Shown here: positions 28,991-35,208 of the stretch, one piece after another
Layout of the letters: each line of letters begins with the position of its first letter
Numbering within the stretch: the first letter of the stretch is position 1
NCBI GenBank assembly: GCA_030247515.1
Contig: JAOTSA010000003.1
Coordinates: 1 to 57,253 of the forward strand
Source of the DNA: Sulfurimonas sp.
GTDB lineage: Bacteria > Campylobacterota > Campylobacteria > Campylobacterales > Sulfurimonadaceae
Direction: 5' to 3'
DNA: 57,253 nt
Position numbers and translations under genes: made by a program
The notes under the pieces: model-generated
What the model was told of the DNA's origin: nothing
Databases searched by the model: none
Seen by the model: the letters and a program-made list of their open reading frames with translations, nothing else

Positions 28991-29005
28991 TTTTCAAGCC
29001 AGTTT

Positions 29006-29011
29006 TATAAT
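29006..29011 (+). promoter_or_regulatory. -10 box immediately upstream of the CRISPR array
   Basis: A perfect TATAAT 12 bases before the first repeat would start a transcript at about 29018, running rightwards into the array. On the minus strand the same bases read TATTAT (29007-29012), a possible -10 for the divergent phosphoethanolamine transferase gene. No clear -35 is seen for either. Confidence 0.5.
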
Positions 29012-29023
29012 AGGATACCGACC

Positions 29024-30049
29024 GTTATAGCCCCCTTTCTCACTCGGATGCGCTATAATTGTTAAGATAGCGCATAGCGTTAGGGCATGGTTATAGCCCC
29101 CTTTCTCACTCGGATGCGCTATAATTTGAGTGCCCAAAGCTCCTCGGTTCTGTTTGTTATAGCCCCCTTTCTCACTCGGATGCGCTATAATAAATGAAGT
29201 TAGCACGTCAAAAATAAAACAGTTATAGCCCCCTTTCTCACTCGGATGCGCTATAATATAGTTAATCAGCTTTTGCAGGCGAAATATGTTATAGCCCCCT
29301 TTCTCACTCGGATGCGCTATAATTCTCGAAAGGGAGAGTATTACCAGCAGGAAGTTATAGCCCCCTTTCTCACTCGGATGCGCTATAATGCTTCTTGCTC
29401 TCTTCATGTGGAGCGTATGGTTATAGCCCCCTTTCTCACTCGGATGCGCTATAATACTTTATTTTCTGTTACTTTAGCTTTTAGGGTTATAGCCCCCTTT
29501 CTCACTCGGATGCGCTATAATCAGAATTTAAACGAGAACTACAAAAAACACGTTATAGCCCCCTTTCTCACTCGGATGCGCTATAATCCATCTAAAGTCA
29601 TAGTCAAAAAATAACTCGTTATAGCCCCCTTTCTCACTCGGATGCGCTATAATAAAGGCTTTTAAAGTACCTGATATAGGTATGTTATAGCCCCCTTTCT
29701 CACTCGGATGCGCTATAATAAGTTTTTGTATAGCTTCTGTCTGTTTCCTGTTATAGCCCCCTTTCTCACTCGGATGCGCTATAATACGCTTTTTTTCTTT
29801 TGGAATTGCAGGACGGTTATAGCCCCCTTTCTCACTCGGATGCGCTATAATAAAAGTAGTTTTAAAAGAACCATTAGTAAGGTTATAGCCCCCTTTCTCA
29901 CTCGGATGCGCTATAATTTTGTCGTTTAAGTTGAGAAATATTAATTTGTTATAGCCCCCTTTCTCACTCGGATGCGCTATAATATATTTAGATTCTATAA
30001 GAGCGAGATTTTGGTTATAGCCCCCTTTCTCACTCGGATGCGCTATAAT
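29024..30049 (+). CRISPR. Type II-C CRISPR array, 16 repeats and 15 spacers
   Basis: Sixteen 36-bp repeats at a strict 66-bp period (starts 29024, 29090 ... 30014) with fifteen 30-bp spacers. All repeats look identical, beginning GTTATAGCCCCC and ending GATGCGCTATAAT. From memory this closely resembles the Neisseria meningitidis type II-C repeat, which sets the crRNA sense to the plus strand. The terminal TATAAT is a consensus -10, so each repeat may drive its own crRNA. The anti-repeat lies in the tracrRNA at 34434. The array converges on cas2 and has only 33 bases between it and the neighbouring gene. Confidence 0.98.
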
Positions 30050-30217: not shown

Positions 30218-30541
30218 TCAAAATAGCAAAAGTTGTTTTTTTTCTAGTTTTTCTTCAGAACTTTTTATTCCCACTAAAGTTTCCATCTTTGAGTATTGCA
30301 AATCTGTTATAGATATCATCCTGATATGTCCTTTTGATGGGATATGCTCTTTTACTCTTTTTTTGTGAGTTTCTACACTGTCATCGCCTTTGCAAATCCT
30401 CGTATAGATTGAAAACTGCATCATGATAAAGCCGTCTTTTAGGAGATGGTTTCTAAACTGGGTATATTTTTTGCGCTCTTTTTTTGTTTTTGTCGGCAGG
30501 TCAAAAAATACAAACAGCCACATAAATTTTTGCTCTTTCAT
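30218..30541 (-). CDS. cas2: CRISPR-associated endoribonuclease/adaptation protein Cas2
   Basis: A 107-residue protein; with Cas1 it forms the spacer-integration complex. The first strand WLFVFFDLPTKTKKERK carries the conserved Asp and is typical of type II Cas2. RNHLLKDGFIMMQFSIYTRI follows. The ATG overlaps the cas1 stop by four bases. The C-terminus is Lys/Glu-rich. Confidence 0.95.
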   Translation of the reverse strand: MKEQKFMWLFVFFDLPTKTKKERKKYTQFRNHLLKDGFIMMQFSIYTRICKGDDSVETHKKRVKEHIPSKGHIRMISITDLQYSKMETLVGIKSSEEKLEKKQLLLF

Positions 30542-31431
30542 AGGAGTGATGGCAGGTTTAACTGATTTGCATCGTTCATTTTTAAGGACTTTACAAATGT
30601 TTGCGCCATCACATCACACAGGTGCAAAAGAGTTACGGTTTCATCATTTAACTTCATCTGCATATTTAAAACATTTATAAGTGCCGATTTTACGCTTATG
30701 CCGAGATGCACATCTAGCTCATCTTCGATTTCTAGTTTTTTTACAACCATGTCCACCATCGGTCTTAGCGGTTCTATCATGTCATCTGCTAGGTTATAGG
30801 CGTTTAGCTCTGAGTTGTGAAAAACCCCAAAAGTCGGCAATAAGCCGTGTGCGACCAGAGACCTTGCCACCGCTCCTCTGACTATGGCATAACCGTAATT
30901 GAGTGCTATGTTTCTTGGGTCAAGTGCTTTTTGGTCTCGCAAAAAGTTTTTGAAGAGCATCTGCCAATATTTTCTAGCGGCAAGTGCCTCTAGGTTCTCG
31001 CTGTCTCCTGATTTTACTTTGTCTTTTAAGAGTTCAAGTTGCAGGTTGTCTATGTCAAAATATTTTAAAAGTTTTGACTGATTTGAGATTTTTTGAGTGA
31101 TGATTTTTTGCCATATCTGTTTTTTAAGAGGCAGCTTCATATCTCTTTGGATATGCGCTATCTGAGAGAGGCGTGAGTGTTGATGAAACGGTGTAAAACA
31201 GCCGTTTGGCATGTGGTAACCGTCACATGTGAAGAGTGCTATATTTTTTTCGGCTATTTGGCTTAAAAGTGCCGTCGTTAGAGTTGCCTGATGTGTTTCA
31301 AGCACCATAACCGTTATGTCTTCAAGAGGCACTTTGATGCTCTCTTCTTCATGTGGTTCATAAATAAGCTGAAGGCTTTTCACGCTCAACTTGCAAGGTT
31401 TGGTAACAAGTACGCTTCTCCACGCAGCCAT
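30538..31431 (-). CDS. cas1: CRISPR-associated integrase Cas1 (type II)
   Basis: A 297-residue integrase that inserts new spacers. It shows an N-terminal beta domain (VLVTKPCKLSVKSLQLIYEP) and the helical catalytic domain with ALNYGYAIVRGAVARSLVAHGL, FGVFHNSELNAYNLADDMIEPLRPMVD (His and Asp ligands). An AAAGGAGG site precedes the ATG, 18 bases after cas9. Order cas9-cas1-cas2 with no csn2 or cas4 is subtype II-C. Confidence 0.96.
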   Translation of the reverse strand: MAAWRSVLVTKPCKLSVKSLQLIYEPHEEESIKVPLEDITVMVLETHQATLTTALLSQIAEKNIALFTCDGYHMPNGCFTPFHQHSRLSQIAHIQRDMKLPLKKQIWQKIITQKISNQSKLLKYFDIDNLQLELLKDKVKSGDSENLEALAARKYWQMLFKNFLRDQKALDPRNIALNYGYAIVRGAVARSLVAHGLLPTFGVFHNSELNAYNLADDMIEPLRPMVDMVVKKLEIEDELDVHLGISVKSALINVLNMQMKLNDETVTLLHLCDVMAQTFVKSLKMNDANQLNLPSLL

Positions 31432-31449: not shown

Positions 31450-34386
31450 TTAGTTTTTCTCTTTTTTTGTGCCCTGTCTCTTCTCATTTTTTACTTCTAC
31501 ATAGCTTCCCAGAGCATCTACTTGATATTTTTTTATAAAGACTAGGTTTTGAGAACCATAATTATATTCTTCATCTCCCTTATGGCTATTAATAAGTATT
31601 TGGGCGGTTGAACTTACTGCTGTGTTAAAATATCCAAAAACCCTCACCGCCTCTTTAGTAGCCGTCTTTTTAGTCTGAACCTCTATCAAATCGCTCTTAT
31701 AAAAAGAGAACAAAAACTCATACTCTTCATCCATCTCTATCCATGGCTTATTTCCTGCCACTATCGCCTCATTTGGCAGTTTTGGTTTTACAAAGTCGCT
31801 TACATAGATGGGAACAAGGTAGTATTTTTTTGTTTTTTTGTTTTGAAACAAATCAACCCTTGGCATACCATCATTTAGCGCAATGCCGTGCTTGAGTTTG
31901 ACATTGTTTTTTACGCCGCCGCCTTTTAAGGAGTCTATTTTTCCATCTGCTTTTTTGACACTTAATGTTTTGTTGCTATAAACCGTATCTTTATGTGCCG
32001 CACCGCCTATCTTTCTTCTTGGCATATGTGAAACAAATATCTTCTCTACACTCTCTTTTACTTTTGCGCCGAACTCTTCCATAGGTGGCTCAAACTTTAG
32101 ATTTTTGGCTTTTTCCTCTTTTGTTTTAAAGCTAAATCCCTCTCTTGCTGCCGATACGGTAGAGAGCTTTTGCACCTCTGATTGTGTTGCAAAAGCTAAA
32201 ATAATCGCATCTTCTGCATGGTGGAGGTGGTTATCTCTATTTTTATCTCCAACTCCCCATTTATGGCGAAGTTGAGCCGTCAGCATACCGTTCATGGTAA
32301 AAACATGCCGCTTCATTTTTGACTCTTTAAACTGAGCGTGTGCTTCAATGTAGTTTTTTACAAACTTAGAGATGTAGGAAGTGTCATTTTTGTTTCTATC
32401 TTTAAAACTATTTTCACTGCTCTCATCAAAATTTGTCTTTAATAGCCTGCTTTTTTTTGCAGATTTTAGGTTTTTTAAACCCTCTGCTCTTATACAAAAC
32501 TCTTGCCACTCTTTTAGCTCTTTGTCTGCTCCAAAATACTCAAAGGGGGTTTTGTTTCCTTTATCTTGGTTCTGTTTCGTAAAACATAAAACTTTGTTGT
32601 TAAACGAATCATCAAGCGAGCGGCTATATGGCAAGATGTGGTCAACTTGTGTTGCAAGGTCGTCCATGAGATGCTCTGGGCGGATTTTAACACCGCTGTA
32701 AACGCACTCGCCGTTTTGCTCTTGCCAAAGTCTAAATTTTAGAAGCTCTTTTGCGCTCGGTTCTCTTCCTAATACCTCTGTTGCGGATATTTTGGCGGCT
32801 TCTTTGCGAACTTGAAACTCATTTTGCTCTTTTTTGATTTTTTGTCTGTCGTCATGTGATTTTTTGATATCCCTCGTAAACTCTACATGCACGGCATCAA
32901 CAGCTCCATATTTTCTGGCCATGGCATTGTAAACAAGCCTCATTTGAGCTACCGCACGCTTTACTACAGGATTTGTCATCTCCAGATTTTCTTGTTCGGT
33001 TAGCGGCGGCAAAAAGAGTGATTTGTCGCCTTTAAATATCGCTTTAAAGTCATACCCTGCCCTCTCGCATGCTTTATCATAGTCTAGCCCATCTTCAAGA
33101 AACGGATTTATTTTTTGCATAGCTTTTGTGCTGATATGTCCAAAACCTGAAAAAGAGAGACTAACAAGAGCATTTGATACCGCTTCATGGTCTATAATCT
33201 TTTGCAACTCTTCAAAAGATTTTTTATCATCTTTTTGTGTGCTAAGAACTTTCGCAATCTCATCTAAAAGCTCATCGTTGTTTTCTATCTTGCCCCAATA
33301 GAGACGGTCTGCACTCTCAACTGCCTTTTGTATCTTCTGATATGCGCTAAAGTCTAGCAGTTTTGCACTCTCAGGCTCTTTTATCTCTCCTGTTTTATGG
33401 TCAAAATATGTCAAACCTTTGAACTGTGCAGTTTTATCAAAACTAAAAAGAGTTTTAAGTGTTTTGTATGTAAATGTTTTTGTAGTTTTCGCTTTATGTA
33501 TAGCTTGGTTCATCTGCTCTTTTGTAAGAGCTAGTTCGCCCTCTTGTGTGATAATCCTAAGATTTTTTAGTTTTTGCAAGGCTCTGAATTTTTCAAATGT
33601 GTAAGCGGCTTTGGGGGCTCTTTTTTGGTCTGGCTCAAATGGGCAGTTTGCTACCATTCCCTCGACGGACTTCAGCGGTCTTTGGGTAAAGGCTATCTCT
33701 TTATAGCTCTCAAGCAATTCATCATTGACAAATCTACTTCCAAACTCTTTTTGTTTTTCAAAAACAGTCTCTATCTCTTTTATAAGCATGGCTCTTGAGA
33801 TAGAATTTTCATAGTTTAGCTTACCGTCCGAACCCTTGCCGTTTCGTTTTTTGACTTTAGTTGAGATGTATTCGCCTATGGTCAGGTACGCACTCTCTTG
33901 AACTATTTTTTCATTTTTTTCTATTCCACCAAGTACAGCTTTTCCTTCACTGTCTGTCGGTTCTTCGCTTTTACGGTTTGAAGCATAGCCACGATGTTTT
34001 ACGAGGTGTATCATGATGCGTGCCAACTCTTTGTTCTCAAGAGGTCTGTAAAGAGCATCTTTTCTTAGTTCCCAAACATCTTTTTGGTTTTTGTTGCCGA
34101 TAAAGAGATTGTCAAGCTCATCGGTTGTTATGATTTTTTCACTAACCAACAATCTTTTAACAGCCCTTAGTTTTTGAGCTTTTCTTTTGGTTGTACGCCT
34201 TGCACTTCTGGCTTCTCTGCGTGGAAGAGCCAAAGATTTCCCATCTTTTGGGTGTTCTGCTATTGTAAAAATTCTGACACCGCTCTCTATTATCCCATTG
34301 TTAGCAGGATTTGTATCATCAACATTTGCCAATGCCCAGCCGATTGATGTGATACCTAAGTCTAATCCCAAAATTGTATTTGCCAT
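31450..34386 (-). CDS. cas9: Type II-C CRISPR effector nuclease Cas9 (compact, 978 aa)
   Basis: RNA-guided DNA endonuclease. RuvC-I ILGLDLGITSIGWAL has catalytic D9; the Arg-rich bridge helix RREARSARRTTKRKAQKLR follows. RuvC-II VHVEFTRDI has E502. The HNH domain has VDHILPYSRSLDDSFNN with H583 and the downstream Asn. RuvC-III HLHHAEDAIILAFA gives H723 and D726. All catalytic residues are present, so the enzyme should be active. The size is close to C. jejuni Cas9 (984) and below N. meningitidis Cas9 (1082). The ATG at 34386 follows AGGGGTTGAA. Its PAM cannot be read from sequence. Confidence 0.97.
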   Translation of the reverse strand: MANTILGLDLGITSIGWALANVDDTNPANNGIIESGVRIFTIAEHPKDGKSLALPRREARSARRTTKRKAQKLRAVKRLLVSEKIITTDELDNLFIGNKNQKDVWELRKDALYRPLENKELARIMIHLVKHRGYASNRKSEEPTDSEGKAVLGGIEKNEKIVQESAYLTIGEYISTKVKKRNGKGSDGKLNYENSISRAMLIKEIETVFEKQKEFGSRFVNDELLESYKEIAFTQRPLKSVEGMVANCPFEPDQKRAPKAAYTFEKFRALQKLKNLRIITQEGELALTKEQMNQAIHKAKTTKTFTYKTLKTLFSFDKTAQFKGLTYFDHKTGEIKEPESAKLLDFSAYQKIQKAVESADRLYWGKIENNDELLDEIAKVLSTQKDDKKSFEELQKIIDHEAVSNALVSLSFSGFGHISTKAMQKINPFLEDGLDYDKACERAGYDFKAIFKGDKSLFLPPLTEQENLEMTNPVVKRAVAQMRLVYNAMARKYGAVDAVHVEFTRDIKKSHDDRQKIKKEQNEFQVRKEAAKISATEVLGREPSAKELLKFRLWQEQNGECVYSGVKIRPEHLMDDLATQVDHILPYSRSLDDSFNNKVLCFTKQNQDKGNKTPFEYFGADKELKEWQEFCIRAEGLKNLKSAKKSRLLKTNFDESSENSFKDRNKNDTSYISKFVKNYIEAHAQFKESKMKRHVFTMNGMLTAQLRHKWGVGDKNRDNHLHHAEDAIILAFATQSEVQKLSTVSAAREGFSFKTKEEKAKNLKFEPPMEEFGAKVKESVEKIFVSHMPRRKIGGAAHKDTVYSNKTLSVKKADGKIDSLKGGGVKNNVKLKHGIALNDGMPRVDLFQNKKTKKYYLVPIYVSDFVKPKLPNEAIVAGNKPWIEMDEEYEFLFSFYKSDLIEVQTKKTATKEAVRVFGYFNTAVSSTAQILINSHKGDEEYNYGSQNLVFIKKYQVDALGSYVEVKNEKRQGTKKEKN

Positions 34387-34433
34387 TTCAACCCCTTTTA
34401 ATGAAAGAGATTATATCATAACAGATGTAGTTT

Positions 34434-34512
34434 ATCCGAGTGAGAAACGAGTGGGCTATAATAAACAGGTTATTGGTTCCTGTGTAAGGCTCTGAACACT
34501 GTTCATCCTTTT
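34434..34512 (+). ncRNA. tracrRNA, divergent from cas9
   Basis: The anti-repeat (34434-34462) is complementary to the array repeat: ATCCGAGTGAGAAA matches exactly, then an extra CGA forms a bulge, then GTGGGCTATAAT pairs with the repeat 5' end with one mismatch and a G-U. Downstream hairpins are ACAGG/CCTGT (34465-34483) and AAGG/CCTT enclosing GAAC/GTTC (34486-34510), followed by a short T run. This layout matches Neisseria-type tracrRNA. A TATATCAT at 34412-34419 may be the -10; the exact 5' end is uncertain. Confidence 0.88.
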
Positions 34513-34623
34513 CAAAAACCATACTTCCTCATTAAAATTATTTTAACATCTCTTTAAATTACATAAACTTCTCAGCAACTTATCGGTACTCTGTCATTTA
34601 TAAAAACTCTAAAAGGCTTAATA

Positions 34624-35208
34624 TTGTCAGATAAACAAGATACACAGTTTGAAGATGCAGTAAAATATATGATGCTTCATGTTGGAGAAAATCCAAACCG
34701 AGAGGGGCTTTTAAAAACTCCACAGAGAGTTAAAAAGGCTTACGAATTTATCTTCGGCGGGTATAAGGAAGACCCCAGAGAGATACTAAAATCTGCTCTT
34801 TTTACAAGCTCTAACGATGAGATGGTTCTTCTAAAAGATATAGAATTTTACTCTACTTGTGAGCATCATCTTTTGCCGATTATTGGGCGTGTGCATGTTG
34901 CTTACATACCAGATGGCAAAGTGGTCGGTTTGTCAAAGATTCCTCGTGTTGTCAATGTTTTTGCACGCCGTATGCAGATTCAAGAGCAGCTGACAGAGCA
35001 GATTGCTGATGCGATTATGGATACGATTCAGCCAAAAGGGGTTGCAGTTGTGATTCAGGCGAGACATATGTGTATGGAGATGAGAGGGGTGGAAAAAATC
35101 AACTCCACGACAACATCATCGGCTCTTCGTGGGTTGTTTAAAAAAGATGAGAAGACAAGAAGCGAGTTTTTCTCTTTGATAAACTCTCCTACTGGCTCAC
35201 GTTATTAG
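34624..35208 (+). CDS. folE: GTP cyclohydrolase I
   Basis: Makes dihydroneopterin triphosphate from GTP, the first step to tetrahydrofolate. The 194-residue type IA enzyme has the zinc/catalytic segment [35 protein letters not shown] and [12 protein letters not shown]. The start is TTG at 34624. It lies just right of the CRISPR tracrRNA and marks the edge of conserved chromosomal DNA. Confidence 0.95.

What the first reader, a model, noticed from the sequence alone, without database searches (positions are those of the whole stretch)
34412..34513. tracrRNA encoded divergently from cas9, with a bulged anti-repeat
ATCCGAGTGAGAAA is exactly complementary to the internal part of the CRISPR repeat. 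A CGA bulge follows, then GTGGGCTATAAT pairs with the repeat 5' end. Two hairpins lie downstream. The element sits in the 237 bases between cas9 and folE and is transcribed away from cas9. The TATAAT inside the anti-repeat (34457-34462) could also drive a shortened RNA that lacks the pairing part.
Basis: partly seen in the sequence, partly recalled or inferred. Interest (0 to 1): 0.72.

Follow-up and report, generated by a model that had tools for sequence, protein, structure and literature searches.

The report
tracrRNA gene of a Sulfurimonas Cas9
This is the ordinary helper RNA (tracrRNA) of a compact type II-C CRISPR-Cas9 immune system; comparison with relatives shows it extends further than first drawn, folds into a pseudoknot like that of Campylobacter jejuni, and probably shares one two-way promoter with cas9.

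Summary
The finding holds. Window 34426 to about 34521 (+) encodes the tracrRNA of a type II-C cas9-cas1-cas2 locus in a Sulfurimonas-type genome. Its anti-repeat (34434-34462, extended 5' to about 34427) is the best partner of the CRISPR repeat in the window by duplex energy (-45.9 against -31.3 kcal/mol for the next unrelated site) and the only near-exact core match in the genome outside the array. The element is conserved divergently upstream of cas9 in all 27 same-genus loci where it could be read. Three corrections: (1) the bulge is a 5x2 internal loop (CGAGU/CC), and the duplex reaches almost the whole repeat. This pseudoknot covaries across the class and matches the arrangement in Campylobacter loci with the C. 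jejuni repeat. (3) 34410-34419 (ATTATATCAT) is promoter, not RNA: two interlocked -10 elements, probably one bidirectional promoter for cas9 and tracrRNA. The TATAAT in the anti-repeat is explained by pairing with the repeat; a short RNA from it is not excluded but unsupported. New member of a known kind.

The parts
34410..34419 (.). ATTATATCAT: proposed bidirectional promoter core; minus-strand extended -10 TGATATAAT for cas9 (TATAAT at 34415-34410) interlocked by 2 bp with plus-strand -10 TATCAT (34414-34419) for the tracrRNA; predicted starts about 34403 (cas9) and 34426 (tracrRNA)
   Evidence: ATTATAnCAT in 27 of 27 same-genus loci, always 28 nt before GAGTGAGA, with 8 variable but length-fixed bases between; starts inferred, not measured
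34426..34433 (+). 5' part of the tracrRNA, UGUAGUUU; 34427-34430 pairs with CUAU near the repeat 3' end
   Evidence: duplex fold; TAG invariant in 27 loci
34434..34447 (+). anti-repeat, exact complement of repeat positions 13-26
34448..34452 (+). CGAGU side of a 5x2 internal loop opposite CC of the repeat
34465..34483 (+). hairpin 1, stem ACAGG/CCUGU, loop UUAUUGGUU
   Evidence: compensatory stems AGAGG/CCUCU, GTGG/CCAC, TCGG/CCGA, GGGG/CCCC, ATGG/CCAT in relatives
34486..34510 (+). hairpin 2, AAGG/CCUU with UGAAC/GUUCA inside
   Evidence: fold
34474..34521 (+). pseudoknot: UGGUU of loop 1 (34474-34478) pairs with AACCA of the tail (34517-34521)
   Evidence: covariation over 39 distinct loci, 0 of 1000 permutations reach the observed energy
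31450..34386 (-). cas9, 978 aa, type II
   Evidence: TIGR01865 720 bits; solved Cas9 relatives
30538..31431 (-). cas1, type II
   Evidence: TIGR03639 284.5 bits
30218..30541 (-). cas2
   Evidence: TIGR01573 77.9 bits
29024..30049 (+). CRISPR array, 16 identical 36-nt repeats and 15 spacers of exactly 30 nt; plus strand is the crRNA sense
34624..35208 (+). folE, right-hand neighbour, not part of the system

Best explanation
The locus encodes the tracrRNA of a minimal type II-C CRISPR-Cas9 system. An RNA starting near 34426 pairs through its 5' part with almost the whole 36-nt repeat of each crRNA; its 3' part folds as hairpin 1, hairpin 2 and a pseudoknot between loop 1 and the tail, which Cas9 would bind as scaffold. 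Cas9 with tracrRNA and crRNA then cuts matching DNA. Transcription most likely starts from a bidirectional promoter at 34410-34419 whose interlocked -10 elements fire tracrRNA to the right and cas9 to the left. Shown by sequence: complementarity, uniqueness, synteny, conservation, covariation, fixed promoter spacing. Inferred: transcription, start sites, shared promoter use, processing (RNase III in C. jejuni), Cas9 binding and DNA cleavage. The stated confidence is for the tracrRNA identity; the pseudoknot I hold at about 0.9 and the shared promoter at about 0.5.
For: Anti-repeat exact, only near-exact core match in the genome, best in the window by energy. Intact type II cas9, cas1, cas2 and array. 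tracrRNA upstream of and divergent from cas9 in 27 of 27 readable same-genus loci and in three other loci of the family. Own repeat preferred over swapped ones. Pseudoknot covariation: mean -6.56 against -4.74 (sd 0.24) with permuted tails, 0 of 1000. Loci with the C. jejuni-type repeat show the same loop-tail pairing. crRNA start sites with a -10 box in each repeat, a tracrRNA and RNase III dependence were measured in C. jejuni (PMC3656092). The predicted 23 bp between divergent starts is one of the common spacings at E. coli bidirectional promoters (PMC12825309).
Against: No RNA data. No Rfam family matches. No clear intrinsic terminator follows the pseudoknot tail, so the 3' end is unknown. 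The plus-strand -10 (TATCAT, no TGN, no -35) is weaker than the cas9 -10, although tracrRNA is usually abundant; the invariant block could be kept for cas9 alone. RNase III was not found in this assembly.
Confidence: 0.95

Rival explanations
1. The TATAAT inside the anti-repeat (34457-34462) drives a shortened RNA, starting near 34469, that lacks the pairing part and acts as a decoy or regulator.
For: A perfect -10 hexamer, conserved in the genus; similar hexamers at the repeat 3' end are real promoters in C. jejuni (PMC3656092).
Against: The hexamer is dictated by pairing with the repeat 5' end GUUAUAGC, and the same site is TAAAAT or TAGAAT where the repeat differs. No TGN before it. A start near 34469 would also cut off the 5' arm of hairpin 1 and so break the scaffold.
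Confidence: 0.05
2. The conserved block 34410-34419 is only the cas9 promoter; tracrRNA starts from another, unrecognised promoter.
For: On the minus strand the block is a perfect extended -10, TGNTATAAT, and its only variable base is the N.
Against: In 27 loci the block stays exactly 28 nt from the GAGTGAGA core while 8 bases between vary freely without an indel, which fits a -10-to-start spacing for the tracrRNA; three more distant loci of the family have TAGGAT, TAAAAT and TATCAT at nearly the same distance from the anti-repeat TAG.
Confidence: 0.35
3. The tail pairing is not a pseudoknot: loop 1 and tail instead form an outer helix that replaces hairpin 1.
For: Both use neighbouring bases, and alignment alone does not prove both helices form at once.
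Against: Hairpin 1 has its own compensatory changes independent of the loop-tail pair, and the tracrRNA scaffold of CjCas9 contains a triple helix in a crystal structure, as cited in PMC11222456.
Confidence: 0.08
4. The site is a decayed inverted CRISPR repeat with no function.
For: tracrRNA anti-repeats resemble inverted repeat copies, and in L098 and L101 the copy is nearly complete.
Against: Conservation with covariation downstream of the anti-repeat, and intact cas genes.
Confidence: 0.02

Closest known systems
Campylobacter jejuni type II-C tracrRNA / CjCas9
   Same: Repeat and anti-repeat logic; -10-like end of each repeat; hairpin 1 whose loop pairs with the tail after hairpin 2, seen in loci carrying the C. 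jejuni-type repeat (L109); triple-helix scaffold known for CjCas9 (PMC11222456).
   Different: In the Campylobacter/Helicobacter-type loci compared, the tracrRNA lies just past the array on the array strand; here it lies upstream of cas9 and divergent from it. The duplex spans nearly the whole repeat with a 5x2 internal loop, against roughly 25 nt there.
Neisseria meningitidis type II-C tracrRNA / NmeCas9
   Same: Type II-C gene set; Nme Cas9 structures are among the close solved relatives (entry names judged from own knowledge).
   Different: Its tracrRNA was not aligned here; from own knowledge it has a nexus and terminal hairpins rather than this pseudoknot.
Brevibacillus laterosporus Cas9 guide scaffold (triple helix)
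   Same: Type II-C Cas9 guide RNA with a tertiary fold not predicted from primary sequence (PMC11222456).
   Different: That paper states that its architecture differs substantially from CjCas9; no detailed match was tested here.
Bidirectional sigma-70 promoters with a shared -10 (Escherichia coli)
   Same: Opposed -10 elements sharing bases; predicted starts 23 bp apart, one of the common spacings (PMC12825309).
   Different: Here one product is a guide RNA and the other the mRNA of the protein that uses it; not shown experimentally.

Membership tests
tracrRNA (type II CRISPR) | anti-repeat complementary to the CRISPR repeat of the same locus | tested here: met
tracrRNA (type II CRISPR) | lies near cas9 and a CRISPR array | tested here: met
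tracrRNA (type II CRISPR) | structured 3' scaffold after the anti-repeat | tested here: met
   hairpins and pseudoknot
tracrRNA (type II CRISPR) | transcribed, processed and bound by Cas9 | not testable with these tools
   no RNA data held
tracrRNA (type II CRISPR) | terminator downstream | tested here: inconclusive
   no site found in 34300-34700
Type II-C CRISPR-Cas | only cas9, cas1 and cas2 (no csn2, no cas4) | tested here: met
   the three cas genes stand next to each other; the neighbours on each side are folE and a sulfatase-like hydrolase
Type II-C CRISPR-Cas | crRNA promoters within repeats | tested here: inconclusive
   each repeat ends in TATAAT, but no start-site data
Campylobacter-type pseudoknotted tracrRNA scaffold | hairpin 1 loop pairs with the tail after hairpin 2 | tested here: met
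Bidirectional promoter | opposed -10 elements sharing bases, starts about 10, 18 or 23 bp apart | tested here: inconclusive
   geometry met in sequence, start sites not measured

The most novel reading that the evidence does not exclude
In Sulfurimonas, cas9 and its tracrRNA are fired from a single bidirectional promoter with interlocked -10 elements, so the protein and its guide scaffold are made from one polymerase-binding site. In related genera (L098, L101) the cas9 promoter may descend from the promoter built into an inverted CRISPR repeat that became the anti-repeat.
Probability: 0.45. Interest if true: 0.5.

Novelty: new member of a known kind. Interest (0 to 1): 0.3.

Why it matters
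It gives a full guide-RNA definition (anti-repeat, two hairpins, pseudoknot tail) for a compact 978-aa Cas9 clade for which no paper turned up in the library searched. It extends the C. jejuni-type pseudoknot to many Campylobacterota-type loci by covariation. It also offers a simple testable idea on how Cas9 and tracrRNA dosage could be linked through one promoter.

Tried and rejected
Rfam scan at gathering and permissive thresholds: nothing. Generic promoter and terminator scan: no convincing tracrRNA promoter or terminator, as it demands a -35. A better anti-repeat elsewhere: none by near-exact core match in the genome or by duplex energy in the window; a low-similarity anti-repeat elsewhere in the genome was not searched for by energy. 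First automatic detection of hairpin 1 picked wrong stems in several loci; repeated with loop limits of 7-12 nt, where L098 and L101 are still not captured because their hairpin 1 is larger. RNase III seemed absent from the genome, but it is present in 126 of 135 genomes of the genus, and the genes aroC, rnc and rnhA, which are neighbours in a relative, are all missing from this 185-contig assembly, so an assembly gap is likelier than loss. Array against phage records: no match. Papers on Sulfurimonas Cas9 or on a cas9/tracrRNA bidirectional promoter: none in the library.

Full report
What is there. The window carries a compact type II CRISPR locus: cas9 (31450-34386, minus), cas1 and cas2 on the same strand, then an array of 16 identical 36-nt repeats with 15 spacers of exactly 30 nt (29024-30049). 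The three cas genes match TIGR01865, TIGR03639 and TIGR01573 above their curated cut-offs. The genome belongs to a genus whose named members in the collection are Sulfurimonas; this assignment is inferred from Cas9 identity and shared upstream sequence.

The anti-repeat. ATCCGAGTGAGAAA at 34434-34447 is exactly complementary to repeat positions 13-26, and GGGCTATAAT at 34453-34462 to positions 1-10 with a G.U at the end. Between them CGAGU faces CC. The duplex goes on upstream: GUAG (34427-34430) pairs with CUAU near the repeat 3' end, so almost all of the repeat is covered, at -45.2 kcal/mol. In a scan of 18,703 windows on both strands the five best sites all overlap this one and the next unrelated sites are at -31.3. 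In the genome the core sequence is found only here and in the array; one-mismatch copies are at background level.

Conservation. In 27 same-genus loci where the region could be read (23 distinct sequences) the element stands divergently upstream of cas9; some genomes were fetched twice, so the number of independent loci is nearer the 23. Three more distant loci of the family have it in the same place. In 14 loci with their own repeats, including Campylobacter and Helicobacter-like ones, the anti-repeat fits its own repeat best in 13 (mean -39.8 against -16.7 kcal/mol swapped). This is strong evidence for function as a tracrRNA.

The fold. Relatives show more: the loop of hairpin 1 is complementary to the tail that follows hairpin 2, and the two change together. 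Examples: UGGUU/AACCA here, UGCGGU/ACCGCA in L013, AACAGUU/AACUGUU in L062, GUAGUU/AACUAC in L064, AAGCUU/AAGCUU in L018, ACGCUUUU/AAAAGCGU in L020, AGGGUU/AACCCU in L104, GCACGG/CCGUGC in L107. Over 39 distinct loci the mean loop-tail energy is -6.56 kcal/mol against -4.74 (sd 0.24) when tails are permuted among loci, with none of 1000 permutations reaching it; shuffled tails give -4.19. Fits differ: L053 and L070 pair weakly at the expected place, and L098 and L101 need a larger hairpin 1 than the script allowed. The stem of hairpin 1 varies with compensation on its own. Loci with the C. jejuni-type repeat show the same arrangement (L109), and the CjCas9 guide scaffold is reported to hold a triple helix (PMC11222456); that the two are the same object is my inference, as the original structure paper was not available.

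The promoter. The stretch 34410-34419, ATTATATCAT, is invariant in the 27 loci except for one base. Read on the minus strand it is TGNTATAAT, a perfect extended -10 for cas9, and the variable base is the N. Read on the plus strand it holds TAnCAT, a plausible -10 for the tracrRNA, overlapping the first by two bases. With 7 bp from -10 to start, starts fall at about 34403 and 34426, 23 bp apart, one of the common spacings at bidirectional promoters in E. coli (PMC12825309). Between the block and the invariant TAG of the anti-repeat lie 8 variable bases that never change in number, which suggests that the distance matters for the tracrRNA as well. Against this, the tracrRNA side has the weaker element. 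I put the shared promoter at roughly even odds.

The TATAAT inside the anti-repeat. It is real (34457-34462), but base pairing with the repeat 5' end GUUAUAGC dictates it, and at the same place other loci have TAAAAT or TAGAAT, following their repeats. An RNA starting there would lack the anti-repeat and the 5' arm of hairpin 1. I regard it as a by-product.

Setting in the class. Two layouts appear: tracrRNA upstream of cas9 and divergent (all same-genus loci read, L018-L020, L097, L098, L101) and tracrRNA just past the array on the array strand (L102-L105, L107-L112). In L098 and L101 the anti-repeat is close to a full inverted repeat, and its complement ends in GCTATAAT about 36 bases before the cas9 start, so the cas9 promoter may stem from a repeat promoter there; L098 also has a second TATAAT nearer cas9, so this is only a lead.

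RNase III. It matures crRNA and tracrRNA in C. jejuni (PMC3656092). No RNase III was found in this assembly, but 126 of 135 genomes of the genus have it. In a relative it sits between aroC and rnhA, and neither of those was found here, so a gap in the 185-contig assembly is the likely reason.

Verdict. A correct reading of an ordinary element of a known kind, with corrected boundaries, a supported pseudoknot and a testable promoter idea.

Noticed in passing
L033, L017, L043 (G103): In this same-genus genome cas9 is split, with about 1.2 kb between the two parts in which a transposase-like reading frame begins, while the tracrRNA and a long array remain.
   Followed up: partly
L098 and L101, anti-repeat upstream of cas9: The anti-repeat is nearly a complete inverted CRISPR repeat, and its built-in TGCTATAAT lies where a cas9 promoter would be, suggesting the cas9 promoter may descend from a repeat promoter.
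   Followed up: partly
G000 (own genome): aroC, rnc (RNase III) and rnhA, neighbours in a relative (L117), are all undetected in this assembly; probably an assembly gap.
   Followed up: yes
L016, L025, L028, L033, L054, L060: These tracrRNAs carry a 13-14-nt insertion (such as GTCTTAGACTTAA) between hairpin 1 and the core of hairpin 2 that could form a small extra hairpin.
   Followed up: no
L037 and L057: The anti-repeat reads CGGGATCCTATAAT in place of CGAGTGGGCTATAAT, although the array in L037 still begins GTTATAGCCC, so pairing there is weaker.
   Followed up: partly
L102-L105, L107-L112 against L011-L020, L097, L098, L101: Two tracrRNA layouts exist in the class: just past the array on the array strand, or upstream of cas9 and divergent.
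   Followed up: partly
window 28994-29407 (-) and 29246-29614 (+): Open reading frames that lie wholly or mostly in the CRISPR array are repeat artefacts, not genes.
   Followed up: yes
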